A DNA stretch of 36,820 nucleotides from Hippea sp. (GTDB lineage Bacteria; Campylobacterota_A; Desulfurellia; Desulfurellales; Hippeaceae): the NCBI GenBank assembly GCA_015486955.1, contig WFQR01000026.1, positions 1 through 36,820 of the forward strand, written 5' to 3'. Under the pieces are notes generated by a model. That model was not told the DNA's origin. It did no database searches and saw nothing but the letters and a program-made list of their open reading frames with translations. Shown here in pieces: positions 22,905 to 29,856 of this stretch. The stretch's first letter is position 1. Each line of letters opens with the position of its first letter. A program made the translations under genes and the position numbers.

Positions 22905-23693
22905 ATGAAGGTTGCAGTTGGACAGTTTCAAATAGTACCCGGCGACGTTGAGAAAAACTTTAAAAAAGGAACAGAGTTGATAAAGGAAGCAATAGATGAA
23001 GACTGCGATTTGGTACTCTTACCCGAAGTGTGGACTACAGGTTTTCTATTCAAAAAACTGAAAGATCTATCAAAAACAACACCGCCTATCTTAGATGAGA
23101 TTAAAAAGCTATCCAAAGACATTATGATTTGTGGAACGTATGTTGTGGACAACCCTACATCCGATAAGGTCTTCAATATATTTTACACAATATTAGATGG
23201 GAAAATCGTGTTTTCCTATAAAAAAACAATGCTTTTCGGCTTGACGGGAGAAGATAAATACTTTGAAAGAGGAGATTTAGATCAAAATTACACCTTCAAT
23301 GCACTCGGTACAACATTTGGAGTTAGCGTATGCTATGAATTGAGGTTCCCTGAGTTCTTCAGAAGAGCAAGCTTTAAGGGAGCTTTAATACATCTACATC
23401 CAGCAATATGGCCAGAAAATAGGCTTGACCACTGGCTGACACTGACGAGGGCAAGAGCCATAGAAAACCAGTTCTTCCTGTTAACGTCAAATGGGGTGAG
23501 ATTAAGTGGTAAGTGGGAACTCTGCGGACACTCTACCATTTATGACCCTTGGGGTGAAGTAGAAAATCGAATAGAAACCAACGAAGGATTGGCAATTAAA
23601 AAAATAAACTTAGAAAAAACAAACGAGGTCAGAAAAAAACTTACTTCTCTAAAAGATTCTGTAGAATTTCTGGGAGACCTTTATATTAGGTAA
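22905..23693 (+). CDS. Carbon-nitrogen hydrolase (nitrilase superfamily, omega-amidase-like)
   Basis: Glu in LVLLPEVWTTGF, Lys in YKKTMLFG, Cys in VSVCYELRFPEFFR. Confidence 0.88.
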   Translation: MKVAVGQFQIVPGDVEKNFKKGTELIKEAIDEDCDLVLLPEVWTTGFLFKKLKDLSKTTPPILDEIKKLSKDIMICGTYVVDNPTSDKVFNIFYTILDGKIVFSYKKTMLFGLTGEDKYFERGDLDQNYTFNALGTTFGVSVCYELRFPEFFRRASFKGALIHLHPAIWPENRLDHWLTLTRARAIENQFFLLTSNGVRLSGKWELCGHSTIYDPWGEVENRIETNEGLAIKKINLEKTNEVRKKLTSLKDSVEFLGDLYIR

Positions 23694-24015
23694 ACACCTT
23701 CAAAGGAGCATCCGGTTTCTTCTTTATCTTGCCTTCCCTAATCTCCTCCTCAAAAGCCTTCATCCTCTTTTCAACCATCTCTTTCAGGTGTGCCTTTATA
23801 TCGCTAATCCTGCCCCTCTCTTTTGCAACTTCTAATAACCTCTCGCCTGTTTTCCTGCCTATAAACTTCGCCGTCTCATGTGGTATCAATAGTGCTCCAC
23901 ATGACGGACAAAAATACACCTCAATATCCTTTATCTCCAGCATCTCACCCTTAACGGGCCTCTTAAAAGGCATAACAATCCTTTTCATCTGCCTTCCACA
24001 ATACTTGCAAACCAT
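23686..24015 (-). CDS. YgiT-type zinc-finger domain protein
   Basis: MVCKYCGRQMKRIVMPFKRPVKGEMLEIKDIEVYFCPSCGALLIP (two CxxC); SD AGGAGG upstream of the internal ATG. Confidence 0.7.
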   Translation of the reverse strand: MVCKYCGRQMKRIVMPFKRPVKGEMLEIKDIEVYFCPSCGALLIPHETAKFIGRKTGERLLEVAKERGRISDIKAHLKEMVEKRMKAFEEEIREGKIKKKPDAPLKVFT

Positions 24016-24045
24016 TACCCTTCGCACCTCCTTTTACAAAATAAA

Positions 24046-24068
24046 AACGAGGGGCTAAATGCCCCCCT
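24046..24068 (-). terminator. Terminator after the CoA-transferase subunit B gene
   Basis: Minus strand GGGGC-ATTTA-GCCCC then TCGTTTTTATTTTG. Confidence 0.65.
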
Positions 24069-24074
24069 GAAATT

Positions 24075-25151
24075 TTAGCCTTTAACCTTAACCCTCCAAG
24101 GCTTGCCCGTCTCTTTCTCGTACTCAATCTCCCTCAATGTCTTCCTACTCAAGTAGATCCTCGTTGGGTCAACGATCATTCTCAATACTTTTAACTGCTC
24201 AATTGTAGGAGTTGGTGTTTCAGGAACATCGTCGGTTGGTTTCAATACCTTACCGCTTTTGTCCTTCAACTCCCAACCCACGTTCTCAATTACGTCCTTC
24301 AAGCTCACGCCTGGGTGGACACTTCTCAACCTCATGTCATAGATACCGTCATTAGGATAACTCTCCATGACGCATATATCTGAGGTCATAACGCCTTTTC
24401 CGCCTCTCGGCACACCGTAATCCCACCTTGTCTCGCCTTCTGGACCCCTTGATCCTGCAATCGTTGTCAAATAGCATACATGCGGTGGGAATCTCCTCTT
24501 TTCCTGAACCATGATAGCGAGCGTGAAGTCAGACTGCTGACCTATTGGGTTAGAACCACCTGATCCTGTAAACCTTACCGCTGGGCCCAATTTATGATCG
24601 TCCATTCTCTCATCCTGGCTTCTTTCGCCTTTCTTTATAATGGATGGGAAGTATCCCATTCTCCCTTCTTTTTCTTTATCCCATATTGCCGTAGCGTTGA
24701 TGTTTCCATACTGATCATACTCAGCACCGCCTAAAACACCGCCTGTGACGTAACCCCTCTGCTCATAAGTTCCAAATGCGTCGATCATGGATAGAGCTGT
24801 TGATGCCATGTATGCACCGCGGATGTCCGCAACGGAGATTGGAATGTGCTCGAACTTTGGATCGAGCATTCCAGCTTCCATAACAATTGTTGCACCTGGG
24901 TTGATCGTATGCTGGGCTTCAGCCATTGTCAAAACGGGCAATCCCGTTCCTACGAACATGGAAGCGCCGTTTGGAATCATAGTGGAACCAGCGATAGCAA
25001 GGAGCTCAATCGTTGTAAACTCATCCGGTGGAAGATCGTACTCCTTGCAGTATGCTTCATACTCAGCATCACTGATACCAGATTTAAAATCTTTAACTAA
25101 CTCAATAATTTCATCAACAGTCGATATCTCTACCGGTACATATACACCCAT
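24075..25151 (-). CDS. CoA-transferase family I, beta-like subunit (glutaconate CoA-transferase B-like)
   Basis: IAGSTMIPNGASMFVGTGLPVLTMAEAQHTINPGATIVMEAGMLDPK (candidate catalytic Glu). SD AAGGAGG before the ATG at 25151; the track start at 25211 is too far upstream. Confidence 0.75.
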   Translation of the reverse strand: MGVYVPVEISTVDEIIELVKDFKSGISDAEYEAYCKEYDLPPDEFTTIELLAIAGSTMIPNGASMFVGTGLPVLTMAEAQHTINPGATIVMEAGMLDPKFEHIPISVADIRGAYMASTALSMIDAFGTYEQRGYVTGGVLGGAEYDQYGNINATAIWDKEKEGRMGYFPSIIKKGERSQDERMDDHKLGPAVRFTGSGGSNPIGQQSDFTLAIMVQEKRRFPPHVCYLTTIAGSRGPEGETRWDYGVPRGGKGVMTSDICVMESYPNDGIYDMRLRSVHPGVSLKDVIENVGWELKDKSGKVLKPTDDVPETPTPTIEQLKVLRMIVDPTRIYLSRKTLREIEYEKETGKPWRVKVKG

Positions 25152-25161
25152 TTTTACCTCC

Positions 25162-26400
25162 TTACTTACCAATAGGTCTGTAGAGATCTGGTTTATATCC
25201 GTATTTTGCATCAGCCCTTAATTCAAAGAGCCTTGCAAAACCGGTCTTTCCATTCGGAGACTCATATTTTGCTTCAATGTTTCCAAACTTGAAGTAGTCT
25301 GTTCCAACCTTGTTCTCCAAGTAATCCCACTCGTCTTTGCCAACTATATTATGCCAGTAATCGGCTAATGCTTTCTTTCCGTCATTTGTTGCTGCAGCCC
25401 TGTTAGCCTTGATGTAGAACATCCACCACATCCAGTCGTAGTCATAGTAATATGTAGAACCTGTTGGATAGCATCCAAATGGTGTTTCAACAATGGCATC
25501 CACATGTGTATATGGAATCTGATTCTCAGAAGCCCTGAGCCTCAACTCCTCTTCAGGAACAATCTTCTCAGCAGAAATTACAAGGTACTTTGCAGAAATG
25601 GACTGCTCAACATCTGGAACAAGCAATCCTTCAATCCTTGCCGTTCCCATCTCACCAACTCTCTGAACATGCGTTGTTGTTACATAAGGAATGTCAGGTG
25701 GGAACAGAATTGCAATTATACCCTTCTCACCTGTATACTTGTTTGTTCTTCTCCTTAAAGCCTCATAGAAAATACCATCTTCAATAGCTGCCGTCTTGTT
25801 CATCGTTGTATCAGGCTCATCGCCTTTGGAGTACTTGTTATTCGGATCATATTGGTGAGGTCTCAAGCCCCAACCATCGAATGGATCCTTAATGATTGCA
25901 TGTCTCTTTGGAGGAATATCTGGATGGATCCAATAACCATTCTCATCCTTACCTCTCAAACCAGCCTCGCCAAACGTATCGTACTCTATTAAATCTGCAC
26001 CTAAATCTGACATACCAGAAGCAAACTGCATTCCGAACCTACCGGCAATAGTTCTCAAAGCCCAGGAATAGTTCGTGTAATCCATAACAGCTTCAATCTG
26101 ACCATCCTCAAGACCTTTCCTAACCTCGTAGGAAACAGGCTGGATTGTCTCAAGACCCAAGTAGGTCATCTCAACCCATGCAAGCTGCAATGCACCACCC
26201 ATCATCATGATAGGTGTAGCACCAGCGTTCGTCTGAACGTACAAATCTTTAATGTTCTGCCTAATAACCTCTCTTGGGATAGCAACATTTGTCCTTGTAT
26301 AACCGAAACCACCTACGCACCAAGCTCTCTTCGGTTTGATGAACTTTTTAACGACTTCTTGTACTGACATTATCTTGTTCTCGCCTTTTGGCACTGCCAT
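25162..26400 (-). CDS. CoA-transferase family I, alpha-like subunit (glutaconate CoA-transferase A-like)
   Basis: MAVPKGENKIMSVQEVVKKFIKPKRAWCVGGFGYTRTNVAIPREVIRQNIKDLYVQTNAGATPIMMMGGALQLAWVEMTYLG; GIIAILFPPDIPYVTTTHVQRVGEMGTARIEGL. SD GGAGGTAGGT before the ATG at 26400. Confidence 0.75.
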   Translation of the reverse strand: MAVPKGENKIMSVQEVVKKFIKPKRAWCVGGFGYTRTNVAIPREVIRQNIKDLYVQTNAGATPIMMMGGALQLAWVEMTYLGLETIQPVSYEVRKGLEDGQIEAVMDYTNYSWALRTIAGRFGMQFASGMSDLGADLIEYDTFGEAGLRGKDENGYWIHPDIPPKRHAIIKDPFDGWGLRPHQYDPNNKYSKGDEPDTTMNKTAAIEDGIFYEALRRRTNKYTGEKGIIAILFPPDIPYVTTTHVQRVGEMGTARIEGLLVPDVEQSISAKYLVISAEKIVPEEELRLRASENQIPYTHVDAIVETPFGCYPTGSTYYYDYDWMWWMFYIKANRAAATNDGKKALADYWHNIVGKDEWDYLENKVGTDYFKFGNIEAKYESPNGKTGFARLFELRADAKYGYKPDLYRPIGK

Positions 26401-26785
26401 ACCTACCTCCAAACTCCTCTAAAAATTTTTCTAATTGTTTTAGTTCTTCCTCCGGATCCGGTGCCTCATTACCAATCTCCGCATATTCAATGGGCACGCC
26501 CAAAACATCCGAGAGTTTTTCGATAAATTCCACAACCCTTTCATATTTCAGACCCGTGATGTAAAAGTCCACAGAGTAATCTGTGTTAAAGTAAACCGTC
26601 GGATACATATCATCGAAATCCAGAATATCCTCGCCACTTATGTTGTAAGGAATAAGCCTAAAACTTGAACCACCAGTTTTAACGATTTTACCGAGACTTT
26701 TGACTTTTTCTAAAATCTCCTCAAATGTTATAAGCTCACCGCCACCTATAATCTTACCCGGTAAAACCGTGAAATCTCCAGACAT
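26348..26785 (-). CDS. Uncharacterized protein, 145 aa, overlapping the CoA-transferase alpha gene
   Basis: ORF MSGDFTVLPGKIIGGGELITFEEILEKVKSLGKIVKTGGSSFRLIPYNISGEDILDFDD...; abuts the upstream ORF stop and overlaps the downstream start by 53 nt. Confidence 0.7.
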   Translation of the reverse strand: MSGDFTVLPGKIIGGGELITFEEILEKVKSLGKIVKTGGSSFRLIPYNISGEDILDFDDMYPTVYFNTDYSVDFYITGLKYERVVEFIEKLSDVLGVPIEYAEIGNEAPDPEEELKQLEKFLEEFGGRYGSAKRREQDNVSTRSR

Positions 26786-27175
26786 TTACTCTAACTCCCT
26801 CTTCTTCGCCCAGAGTGTCCTCAAAACGTCCTCAATCTTACCCTCTGTGTACTCAAGCATCTCTTTTGCGTTCTTGATGTAGTCAAGTTTGAGCCTCAAC
26901 TCATTCTCCATAATCTCTGCAGTCTCTTTTTGCTTTAGCTCATCTACCAACTTGCCTAATCTTGTAATGGCTGCAGGAACCTTCTTGAACTGCCACATCC
27001 ACGTTTCAAAGTAATAATTGGACATGGCGAGTTCCCATACCTGCGCTGTCAAAGATTTCCACGTCTCTAACTTCTCTTTAGACTCTTTCTGAGGCTGTTC
27101 TTGAACCTCTACCTTAGGTGCAGTTCGCCTCATCTTTTCTCGAAAGGCTTTTGGATAAGCTATCACTCTTCTCAC
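26786..27175 (-). CDS. Uncharacterized helical protein, 129 aa, first gene of the CoA-transferase operon
   Basis: MRRVIAYPKAFREKMRRTAPKVEVQEQPQKESKEKLETWKSLTAQVWELAMSNYYFETWMWQFKKVPAAITRLGKLVDEL...; SD AAGGAGGTGAG upstream. Confidence 0.75.
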   Translation of the reverse strand: MRRVIAYPKAFREKMRRTAPKVEVQEQPQKESKEKLETWKSLTAQVWELAMSNYYFETWMWQFKKVPAAITRLGKLVDELKQKETAEIMENELRLKLDYIKNAKEMLEYTEGKIEDVLRTLWAKKRELE

Positions 27176-27616: not shown

Positions 27617-29281
27617 ATGGTACAAAACAAAATTGTTGGTGTAAGGGATGCGTTAAGTATCATTAAAGATGGGGATGTAGTGGCAATTTCAGGTTTTAAC
27701 CTTTCCACATCCCCAGAGTACCTAATCTTAGAACTTTTCAAGATGTACAAAGAAACGGGACATCCAAACAACCTGTTCATCATCTCCGACACATTACCTG
27801 CAGTGCCAGATAGGGGTCTTGATAAGGTATTCTCAGAGCTTTATGAAATGAAAGATCAAAACTTCATAAGGGGCGTTCTAATGCCGTTTATAGGATGGTC
27901 GCCAGCCCTTATGAAAATGACCTTAGAAAATAGGATAGAAGTTTACTCCTATGCTATAGGCACAACATCTTATTGGTTTAGGGAAGTGGCAAGCGGAAGG
28001 CCAGGTTTGATCACAAAGGTTGGAATTGGAACGTTCTTAGACCCAAGAATAGACGGCGGAGCATCCAACGAACTGGCTAAAGAGAGAAAAACGTGCAAGG
28101 TCTCAACTATAGAAATTGATGGCGAAGAATGGTTGTTGTATCAAGCTCCAACACCAGATGTAGCCCTCGTTAGAGGAACAACAGCAGACGAAGATGGAAA
28201 CATTTCTATGGAAGAAGAAGGCATATATGGAACGGTATTAAACATTTGTCAAGCTGCTAAAGCCTTGCCAAACCCAGGAAAAACAATAGTTCAGGTAAAA
28301 TACGTTGCAAGGAAGGACACCATACCGACAAGGGACGTTGTAGTTCCAGCTCCTCTTGTAGATTACGTCGTTGTCGCTCCGGATGCTGAGAAATACCACA
28401 AAATATCTGGCAGTTACGTATATGACCCAAGACTCGCTGGACATGTAAAAGCTAAGAAGACAAAGGAAATGGAAGATCTTCTGCCAACACCAAGCAAAAT
28501 CAGGGATCGAATTGTTGCAGGAAGGGTTCTAATTGAGGCAATGCGACTCGCTGCCAAGCTGAAGAAACCTCTTTTTGGAAACTTAGGTATAGGAATACCC
28601 GTTTATGTTTCTTGGCTTGCAGGAGAATTTGGATACAGCGACCTGTTAGCATTAACAGTGGAACCAGGTCCTGTCGGTGGCATAGCCTTAGTTGGTGCAG
28701 ATTTTGGAGTAGCAATATCACCACAGGCTTTAATACCTATGCCAGATATGTTCACAAACTACGAGGGTGGAATAATAGACTTTGCTTCGTTGGGCTTTAT
28801 GGAGATAGATCCAAAGGGTAATGTTAACCCATCTTACAGCTCTGTCAGGGTTTCTGGACCGGGTGGTTTCCCTGTAATCAGCGCAGGATCCCCAAGAACG
28901 TTCTTTGCCGGTGGATTCACAGCTGGAAAATTCGACATAGACGCCGATAATGGAAAATTAATAATCAAATCAGACGGCAATATCTTGAAATTCAATGAAC
29001 AAATTGTAAAGATCGTTTTCAGTGGTCCACAGGCAGTTAAAAGCGGAAAAGAAATACTTTATGTAACCGAAAGGGCAGTATTTGGATTGAACGAGAATGG
29101 ATTAGTTCTAAAAGAGGTTGCACCCGGCGTAGACATAGAAAAGGACATCTTGGCAAAGATGAACTTCAAACCACAAATACCAGACAAGGTGGAAACAATG
29201 CCAGAATGCCTGTTCTACAAAGAATTAGACCCGCTTAAGGAATTTATCGATTCTATATTAAACGAGGCGGGACTGCTTTAA
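27617..29281 (+). CDS. Fused alpha-beta acyl-CoA:acetate/3-ketoacid CoA-transferase (YdiF-like)
   Basis: 554 aa with both domains; catalytic-Glu motif LALTVEPGPVGGI; GNLGIGIPVYV; SD AGGAGG. Confidence 0.88.
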   Translation: MVQNKIVGVRDALSIIKDGDVVAISGFNLSTSPEYLILELFKMYKETGHPNNLFIISDTLPAVPDRGLDKVFSELYEMKDQNFIRGVLMPFIGWSPALMKMTLENRIEVYSYAIGTTSYWFREVASGRPGLITKVGIGTFLDPRIDGGASNELAKERKTCKVSTIEIDGEEWLLYQAPTPDVALVRGTTADEDGNISMEEEGIYGTVLNICQAAKALPNPGKTIVQVKYVARKDTIPTRDVVVPAPLVDYVVVAPDAEKYHKISGSYVYDPRLAGHVKAKKTKEMEDLLPTPSKIRDRIVAGRVLIEAMRLAAKLKKPLFGNLGIGIPVYVSWLAGEFGYSDLLALTVEPGPVGGIALVGADFGVAISPQALIPMPDMFTNYEGGIIDFASLGFMEIDPKGNVNPSYSSVRVSGPGGFPVISAGSPRTFFAGGFTAGKFDIDADNGKLIIKSDGNILKFNEQIVKIVFSGPQAVKSGKEILYVTERAVFGLNENGLVLKEVAPGVDIEKDILAKMNFKPQIPDKVETMPECLFYKELDPLKEFIDSILNEAGLL

Positions 29282-29288
29282 AAGATAC

Positions 29289-29313
29289 GGGGGTTAACCC
29301 CCCCTTTTTTTTT
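29289..29313 (+). terminator. Terminator after the fused CoA-transferase gene
   Basis: GGGGGTTAACCCCC CC TTTTTTTTT. Confidence 0.8.
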
Positions 29314-29316
29314 AAA

Positions 29317-29649
29317 TCAATACCCAGAGATCTTTGTGTTCAACCTTGCCTCGTAAACCTCTGCACCTTTGTCTGTTGCGTACATCAAAAACACATCAAC
29401 CTCTGGCGAAGAGCTACCAAGTCTTTTTGATTCAGAGACCACCAAGACATCGCCTTCCTTTAATTTTGGCAAGATTTCTTTACCTAACCTCCTGTTTTTC
29501 CAACTTATGTACGGCTTAACATTCTCTATTAAATACTCAACATCTTCTGATTTGAGACCAAACTTATCCTTGACAAATTTATCGATCGCTGCCTTTTGTA
29601 AAATCTTTTCAGCCTCATTGTCATACTGGATATAGCCATAAACCTTCAT
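29317..29649 (-). CDS. Serine-recombinase (resolvase N-terminal) fold protein, 110 aa, apparently lacking catalytic residues and a DNA-binding domain
   Basis: MKVYGYIQYDNEAEK...YISWKNRRLGKEILPKLKEGDVLVVSESKRLGSS...GAEVYEARLNTKI resembles resolvase N-domains (MKVYGYIRVSTxxQ...WKxRxLGxLLxxLKxGDVLxVSExSRLGRS...GxxVYxxK), but IRVST is IQYDN and LGRS is LGSS. SD GGAGG. Confidence 0.65.
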   Translation of the reverse strand: MKVYGYIQYDNEAEKILQKAAIDKFVKDKFGLKSEDVEYLIENVKPYISWKNRRLGKEILPKLKEGDVLVVSESKRLGSSSPEVDVFLMYATDKGAEVYEARLNTKISGY

Positions 29650-29661
29650 TTCCTACCTCCG

Positions 29662-29856
29662 TTAAACTAACTGTACTATATCTACTTCTTCGTTTATTAT
29701 AACCTCACATGCGTTCGGCAATCTTAAATACCTTTTTTCTATCTTCTTCTTTGCCTCTTCCTTATTCTTTGCCCTTACTATATTCGTAGTTACAAGCTTT
29801 CTCTCGTCTCTGTATATAACCAAAGCCAAAACCTTATATGTGTGCATACCCTCCAT
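29662..29856 (-). CDS. Uncharacterized small protein (64 aa or 61 aa)
   Basis: MEGMHTYKVLALVIYRDERKLVTTNIVRAKNKEEAKKKIEKRYLRLPNACEVIINEEVDIVQLV; 12 nt upstream of the 110 aa gene; SD GGAGGGT for M4. Confidence 0.6.
   Translation of the reverse strand: MEGMHTYKVLALVIYRDERKLVTTNIVRAKNKEEAKKKIEKRYLRLPNACEVIINEEVDIVQLV

What the first reader, a model, noticed from the sequence alone, without database searches (positions are those of the whole stretch)
29317..29856. Catalytically dead serine-recombinase-like domain repurposed as a stand-alone protein, in a two-gene unit
The 110 aa product follows the resolvase N-terminal domain pattern closely over most of its length (MKVYGYI, SWKNRRLG, LKEGDVLVVSE, KRLG, GAEVYEA). 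The nucleophile segment RVST is replaced by QYDN, so both the catalytic Ser and the preceding Arg are lost, LGRS becomes LGSS, and no DNA-binding domain follows. It has a good SD and sits 12 nt behind an uncharacterized 61-64 aa gene. An intact ORF with eroded active site suggests a domesticated, non-recombinase role such as a multimerization, regulatory or decoy protein. The family assignment is by eye.
Basis: partly seen in the sequence, partly recalled or inferred. Interest (0 to 1): 0.72.

Follow-up and report, generated by a model that had tools for sequence, protein, structure and literature searches.

The report
Dead recombinase domain tied to metabolism
A small bacterial protein built on the cutting domain of a DNA-rearranging enzyme has lost the residues that do the cutting, yet it has been kept for a very long time together with a tiny partner and a set of metabolic genes, so it has most likely been given a new, non-cutting job there.

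Summary
The 110-aa protein (W31, 29317-29649, -) has the serine-recombinase catalytic fold (AlphaFold pLDDT 94; best Foldseek hits Sin and gamma-delta resolvase), ending just before the dimerisation helix and DNA-binding domain. It is not recent decay: orthologs occur in 17 of 25 held genomes of the phylum-level group (Hippea/Desulfurella relatives). All 17 lack Arg8 and Arg71, 15 lack Ser10; 11 full-length relatives keep all three. dN/dS in unsaturated pairs is mostly 0.03-0.08. The 64-aa neighbour (W32; eL20/LX- or RNAP-epsilon-like fold, weak match) is co-conserved just upstream. The new result is co-inheritance of the pair with a glutaconate-CoA-transferase-like operon (23686-27175): collinear in one family, elsewhere sometimes unlinked but present or absent together (24/25 genomes). 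In the one genome that lost the operon, a remnant remains, the 64-aa gene is frameshifted and the 110-aa gene has lost its ATG. A recombinase decoy is unlikely: several near-complete genomes have no other resolvase. Best reading: a domesticated pseudo-recombinase acting with its partner as an accessory or regulatory module of this CoA-transferase system. The link is supported; the biochemical mechanism is inferred.

The parts
29317..29649 (-). W31: 110-aa catalytically dead serine-recombinase core domain (no helix E, no DNA-binding domain)
29662..29856 (-). W32: 64-aa partner protein, beta-beta-alpha-beta fold resembling eL20/LX and RNAP epsilon (weak)
29650..29661 (-). 12-nt gap between W32 stop and W31 start, containing the W31 SD (GGAGG)
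29289..29305 (.). Terminator-like hairpin between the convergent W31 and W30 (6 overlapping pattern matches found in the region, 0.4 expected)
   Evidence: similar hairpins downstream of W31 in several relatives
26786..27175 (-). W29: 129-aa protein of unknown function, first gene of the linked operon
26348..26785 (-). W28: 145-aa protein of unknown function, second gene of the linked operon
25162..26412 (-). W27: glutaconate-CoA-transferase-alpha-like subunit (1poi_A, E=2.6e-19)
24075..25211 (-). W26: glutaconate-CoA-transferase-beta-like subunit (1poi_B, E=1.2e-22); E-x-G glutamate kept
23686..24027 (-). W25: 113-aa YgiT-type zinc-finger protein, last gene of the linked operon

Best explanation
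W31 is a domesticated serine recombinase reduced to its alpha/beta catalytic core. It has lost the catalytic residues, the dimerisation helix E and the DNA-binding domain, so it should not be able to recombine DNA (from sequence and predicted structure). It is encoded with W32, a small eL20/RNAP-epsilon-like protein, in one short unit (adjacency shown; co-transcription and physical binding inferred). The pair serves the glutaconate-CoA-transferase-like system W29-W28-W27-W26-W25 (link supported by collinearity, shared presence and absence, and shared decay). Most likely W31 and W32 bind each other and act as an accessory or regulatory module of that enzyme system, for example controlling its assembly, activity or expression in these sulfur-reducing anaerobes (inferred). 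W31 would be a protein-binding scaffold whose surface vacated by helix E, or whose former active-site cleft (acidic at position 10 in 15 of 17), contacts a partner (inferred).
For: Fold and dead site. Old family under purifying selection. Pair conserved together. Collinear W32-W31-W29-W28-W27-W26-W25 in family f3. W32 directly upstream of W29-W25 in G023. Shared phyletic pattern W27/W32 in 24 of 25 genomes, including genomes where the loci lie on different contigs or about 25 kb apart. G013: operon reduced to a 39-aa W28 remnant, W32 with two 1-nt deletions, W31 start codon ATA.
Against: The operon occurs outside the phylum without W31 or W32 (G130, G266), and G023 keeps operon and W32 without W31, so W31 is not strictly required. 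In Desulfurella and other relatives the pair is not adjacent to the operon. The phyletic correlation rests on few independent events (about three to four) and some genomes are incomplete. G013's two deletions are in A-runs of a draft assembly. No interaction, expression or activity data.
Confidence: 0.45

Rival explanations
1. W32 and W31 form a general gene-expression factor (RNA-polymerase- or ribosome-associated) of this lineage, and the co-occurrence with the CoA-transferase operon reflects shared chromosomal history rather than shared function.
For: W32 fold resembles eL20/LX (probability 1.00, TM 0.73, E=0.15) and RNAP epsilon YkzG (probability 0.91, E=0.51). The pair moves between neighbourhoods: next to citrate synthase/radical SAM, or acetate kinase.
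Against: A housekeeping factor should not be missing from near-complete relatives such as G003 (98% complete) and G020 (94%), which also lack the operon; decay of the pair with the operon in G013.
Confidence: 0.2
2. W31 has gained a new enzymatic or ligand-binding role in the old active-site cleft, using the retained Tyr6, Arg45, mostly Arg68, and the new acidic residue at position 10.
For: Tyr6 and Arg45 equivalents invariant, position 10 acidic in 15 of 17.
Against: Position 10 is Ser in f3, position 8 is Gln or Val, Arg68 is Lys in Desulfurella; no extra invariant set typical of an active site was identified.
Confidence: 0.12
3. Selfish or conflict module (toxin-antitoxin-like or phage-derived two-gene unit).
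For: Two small adjacent genes whose genomic position varies.
Against: Single copy per genome, mostly tree-like inheritance, no short homolog found in phage or plasmid collections. Viral contigs could not be searched.
Confidence: 0.06
4. Decoy or heterodimer partner that regulates a resident serine recombinase.
For: Recombinase fold; an active serine recombinase is present in G007, G016 and G018.
Against: G001, G004, G006, G008, G010, G011, G019 and G021 have no other PF00239 match; helix E, the dimer interface, is missing.
Confidence: 0.04
5. Recent pseudogene or sequencing artefact.
For: The active site is eroded.
Against: Orthologs in six genera with dN/dS mostly below 0.1 and the same truncation.
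Confidence: 0.01

Closest known systems
Mpi-type / small serine recombinases (NCBIfam PRK13413; plasmid 'recombinase family protein' of Sulfurospirillum and Megaera)
   Same: Same alpha/beta catalytic core, about 30-36% identity, shared SWK.RK and SE..RLG motifs
   Different: W31 lacks Arg8, Arg71 and (mostly) Ser10, lacks helix E and the DNA-binding domain, and is about half as long
Sin and gamma-delta resolvase catalytic domains (3pkz, 2rsl)
   Same: Best structural matches (TM about 0.73)
   Different: About 20% identity; catalytic and dimerisation features absent
Ribosomal protein eL20/LX and RNA polymerase epsilon YkzG (for W32)
   Same: Similar small beta-alpha fold by Foldseek
   Different: No sequence relationship detected; Foldseek E-values are not significant
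Glutaconate CoA-transferase GctA/GctB (for the linked W27/W26)
   Same: Both subunits match; a Glu aligns with the E-x-G motif
   Different: Longer subunits, extra small proteins W28/W29, substrate unknown
Exapted mobile-element recombinases (Hin-type inversion and others; PMC8987985)
   Same: Cellular use of a mobile-element recombinase gene
   Different: The serine-recombinase examples in that review still act on DNA; this one should not

Membership tests
Serine recombinase (PF00239), structural family | Resolvase catalytic-core fold | tested here: met
   AlphaFold and Foldseek; profile hits
Serine recombinase, as an active enzyme | Nucleophile Ser10 | tested here: not met
   Asp in the window; absent in 15 of 17 orthologs
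Serine recombinase, as an active enzyme | Catalytic Arg8 and Arg71 | tested here: not met
   Absent in 17 of 17; present in 11 of 11 full-length relatives
Serine recombinase, as an active enzyme | Long dimerisation helix E and C-terminal DNA-binding domain | tested here: not met
   ORF ends at 110 aa, before helix E; same in all orthologs
Recombinase decoy or regulator | A serine recombinase in the same genome to act on | tested here: not met
   No other PF00239 match in G001, G004, G006, G008, G010, G011, G019, G021
eL20/LX or RNAP epsilon (for W32) | Homologous sequence and significant fold match | tested here: inconclusive
   Foldseek probability 1.00 and 0.91 but E 0.15 and 0.51; no sequence match
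CoA-transferase accessory module | Genetic linkage, co-occurrence and co-decay with W25-W29 | tested here: met
CoA-transferase accessory module | Physical or regulatory interaction with W25-W29 | not testable with these tools
   Needs complex prediction or experiment
Glutaconate-type CoA-transferase (W26/W27) | Both subunit types present and the E-x-G glutamate kept in the beta subunit | tested here: met
   that this Glu is the catalytic one is from memory; activity and substrate not tested

The most novel reading that the evidence does not exclude
A serine recombinase core has been turned into a dedicated, non-DNA-acting subunit or regulator of a metabolic CoA-transferase system, together with a small ribosomal-protein/RNAP-epsilon-like partner. 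I found no described precedent for a serine recombinase converted into a metabolic accessory protein.
Probability: 0.35. Interest if true: 0.72.

Novelty: new variant of a known kind. Interest (0 to 1): 0.57.

Why it matters
Exaptation of mobile-element recombinases is known mainly where the DNA activity is kept. Here a catalytic core alone is conserved across several families without activity, dimer helix or DNA binding, and it comes with a specific testable partner and target operon. It would also give a role to two unannotated small proteins of acetate-oxidising sulfur reducers and point to an uncharacterised CoA-transferase system in them.

Tried and rejected
Decay or artefact: rejected. 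Recombinase decoy: rejected because several near-complete genomes have no other PF00239 protein. Multimerisation through the recombinase interface: rejected because helix E is absent. Viral or mobile module: the phage collection gives one hit and the plasmid collection 14; the four records I opened carry full-length proteins of about 200 aa with the catalytic residues. The viral-contig scans failed for technical reasons four times, so that collection was not searched. Operator search: the regions upstream of the 64-aa gene show no shared inverted repeat by eye beyond close relatives, and the promoter scan was negative. Family libraries gave nothing usable for the 64-aa protein. Literature: searches for inactive or domesticated serine recombinases found no precedent; only open-licence papers were searchable.

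Full report
CHECKING THE OBSERVATION. I call them W31 and W32. The sequence resemblance to resolvases is real but weak on a single sequence: PF00239 E=0.011, below its cut-off, and the Mpi invertase model of NCBIfam at E=3.5e-6 over residues 3-102. A profile of 17 orthologs (A1) reaches full-length active recombinases elsewhere at E=1e-15 and Sin recombinase in the PDB at E=3e-4. An AlphaFold model from that alignment has pLDDT 94 and pTM 0.86. Foldseek returns Sin and gamma-delta resolvase catalytic domains as the best matches (E=1.9e-5, probability 1.00, TM 0.73).

WHERE IT COMES FROM. The window lies in a 1.67-Mb draft genome (G000). The named relatives are 'Desulfurellales' and 'Desulfurellaceae' metagenome-assembled genomes. 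Surrounding genes fit an anaerobe that runs a TCA cycle: monomeric isocitrate dehydrogenase, a 2-oxoglutarate oxidoreductase delta-like subunit and a FadX-like CoA-transferase. The holding has 25 genomes of this phylum-level group.

DEAD BUT CONSERVED. 17 of 25 genomes carry the 110-aa gene, always about 105-115 aa and without a DNA-binding domain. Mapped on active relatives, Arg8 and Arg71 are gone in all 17 and Ser10 in 15; all 11 comparison recombinases keep every one of these residues. The two family-f3 orthologs (G019, G021) have Ser at position 10 within 'YIQIS', but Gln at 8 and Asn at 71. Tyr6 and the Arg45 equivalent are invariant; the Arg68 equivalent is Arg or Lys. The protein stops where active relatives begin the long helix E ('QSKI.AMAFS.ASEIERDLIS'), which forms the recombinase dimer (general knowledge of the family). 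dN/dS in unsaturated pairs is mostly 0.03-0.08 for both genes, and 0.17-0.24 for the f3 pair. A tree puts all 17 in one clade (100/99) apart from active recombinases. This is an old pseudoenzyme, not fresh decay.

THE PARTNER. The 64-aa gene lies within about 40 nt upstream in every genome where both are intact and has 71% mean column identity. It is absent where the 110-aa gene is absent, with one exception: G023 has the 64-aa gene only. In about 360 genomes sampled outside the phylum it has one marginal hit. Its model (pLDDT 95) resembles ribosomal protein eL20/LX (probability 1.00, TM 0.73, E=0.15) and the RNA polymerase epsilon subunit YkzG (probability 0.91, E=0.51). This is a lead about shape, not shown homology.

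THE FUNCTIONAL LINK. In family f3 the order is W32-W31-W29-W28-W27-W26-W25, all on one strand (L045, L046); G023 has the same operon without W31 (L051). In Hippea-type relatives, including the window, the same operon lies next to the pair across a convergent CoA-transferase gene (W30). W27 and W26 are glutaconate-CoA-transferase-like (1poi_A E=2.6e-19, 1poi_B E=1.2e-22). W26 has a Glu in 'MEAGMLD' aligned with 'VESGLMD' of the solved enzyme; that this is the catalytic Glu is from memory. Across the 25 genomes W27 and W32 agree in 24 (Fisher p=1.7e-5), and W27 and W31 in 23 (p=1.3e-4). This includes genomes where the two loci are on different contigs (G011, G012, G014) or about 25 kb apart (G016-G018). 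These p-values ignore phylogeny: on a YchF tree G003 and G005 are sisters, and G015 and the f4 genomes are further cases (G009 could not be placed), so there are about three to four independent events, and several of the 'absent' genomes are incomplete.

A NATURAL EXPERIMENT. G013 lacks the operon. Between W30 and W24 only a 39-aa remnant of W28 remains (56% identity, E=1e-8). In the same genome W32 carries two single-base deletions, and the start codon of W31 reads ATA. In the W31 tree the G013 branch is 0.18 against 0.053 for its sister G010, whereas in the YchF tree they are about equal (0.086 and 0.098). The two deletions sit in A-runs and could be assembly errors; the deleted operon and the changed start codon are less easily explained that way.

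WHAT IT IS NOT. It is not a decoy for a resident recombinase: G001, G004, G006, G008 and others have no other PF00239 match. It is not a phage or plasmid module by the searches that ran; the viral-contig collection could not be searched.

MECHANISM, WITH STATUS OF EACH STEP. Shown by computation: resolvase-core fold; active site, helix E and DNA-binding domain lost; purifying selection; pairing with W32; co-inheritance with W25-W29. Inferred: W31 and W32 form a complex; the complex acts on the CoA-transferase system at the protein level or on its expression. The core of the operon exists elsewhere without W31 (G130, G266), so the pair is a lineage-specific addition, which fits a regulator or assembly factor better than a catalytic subunit. 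The substrate of the CoA-transferase is unknown. [quoted passage not shown] maritima and H. jasoniae (PMC9768450), so W26/W27 appear uncharacterised there.

NOVELTY. Domesticated mobile-element recombinases are known. In the passages I read of one review (PMC8987985), serine recombinases appear only where they still act on DNA. Searches of open-licence literature found no inactive serine-recombinase core with a metabolic association. I therefore call it a new variant of a known kind (pseudoenzyme exaptation), with moderately high interest because the proposed target is now specific and testable.

Noticed in passing
window 23686-27175: Five-gene operon (W29-W25) with two glutaconate-CoA-transferase-like subunits and two unannotated small proteins; related clusters occur in two genomes outside the phylum next to a phenylacetate-CoA-ligase-like gene (by eye).
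   Followed up: partly
L045, L046, L051 (family f3): W27 is 74-76% identical between f3 and the window although YchF is only 43-44% identical; the operon may have moved horizontally, or f3's YchF is a different lineage.
   Followed up: no
L039, L041, L043, L044, L049: Where the pair is not next to the operon it tends to lie beside central acetate genes: citrate synthase plus a radical SAM gene, or acetate kinase.
   Followed up: partly
window 27617-29281: FadX-like CoA-transferase (W30) convergent with the pair; [quoted passage not shown] Identity not tested.
   Followed up: no
G002:C81:6488-6571: A second, cut-off copy of the 64-aa gene at a contig end in G002; probably strain variation in the metagenome assembly.
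   Followed up: no
L074, L084, L086-L088 (G018): Five near-identical full-length serine recombinases of about 210 aa in one Desulfurella-family genome; they look like copies of an IS607-type element (by eye).
   Followed up: no
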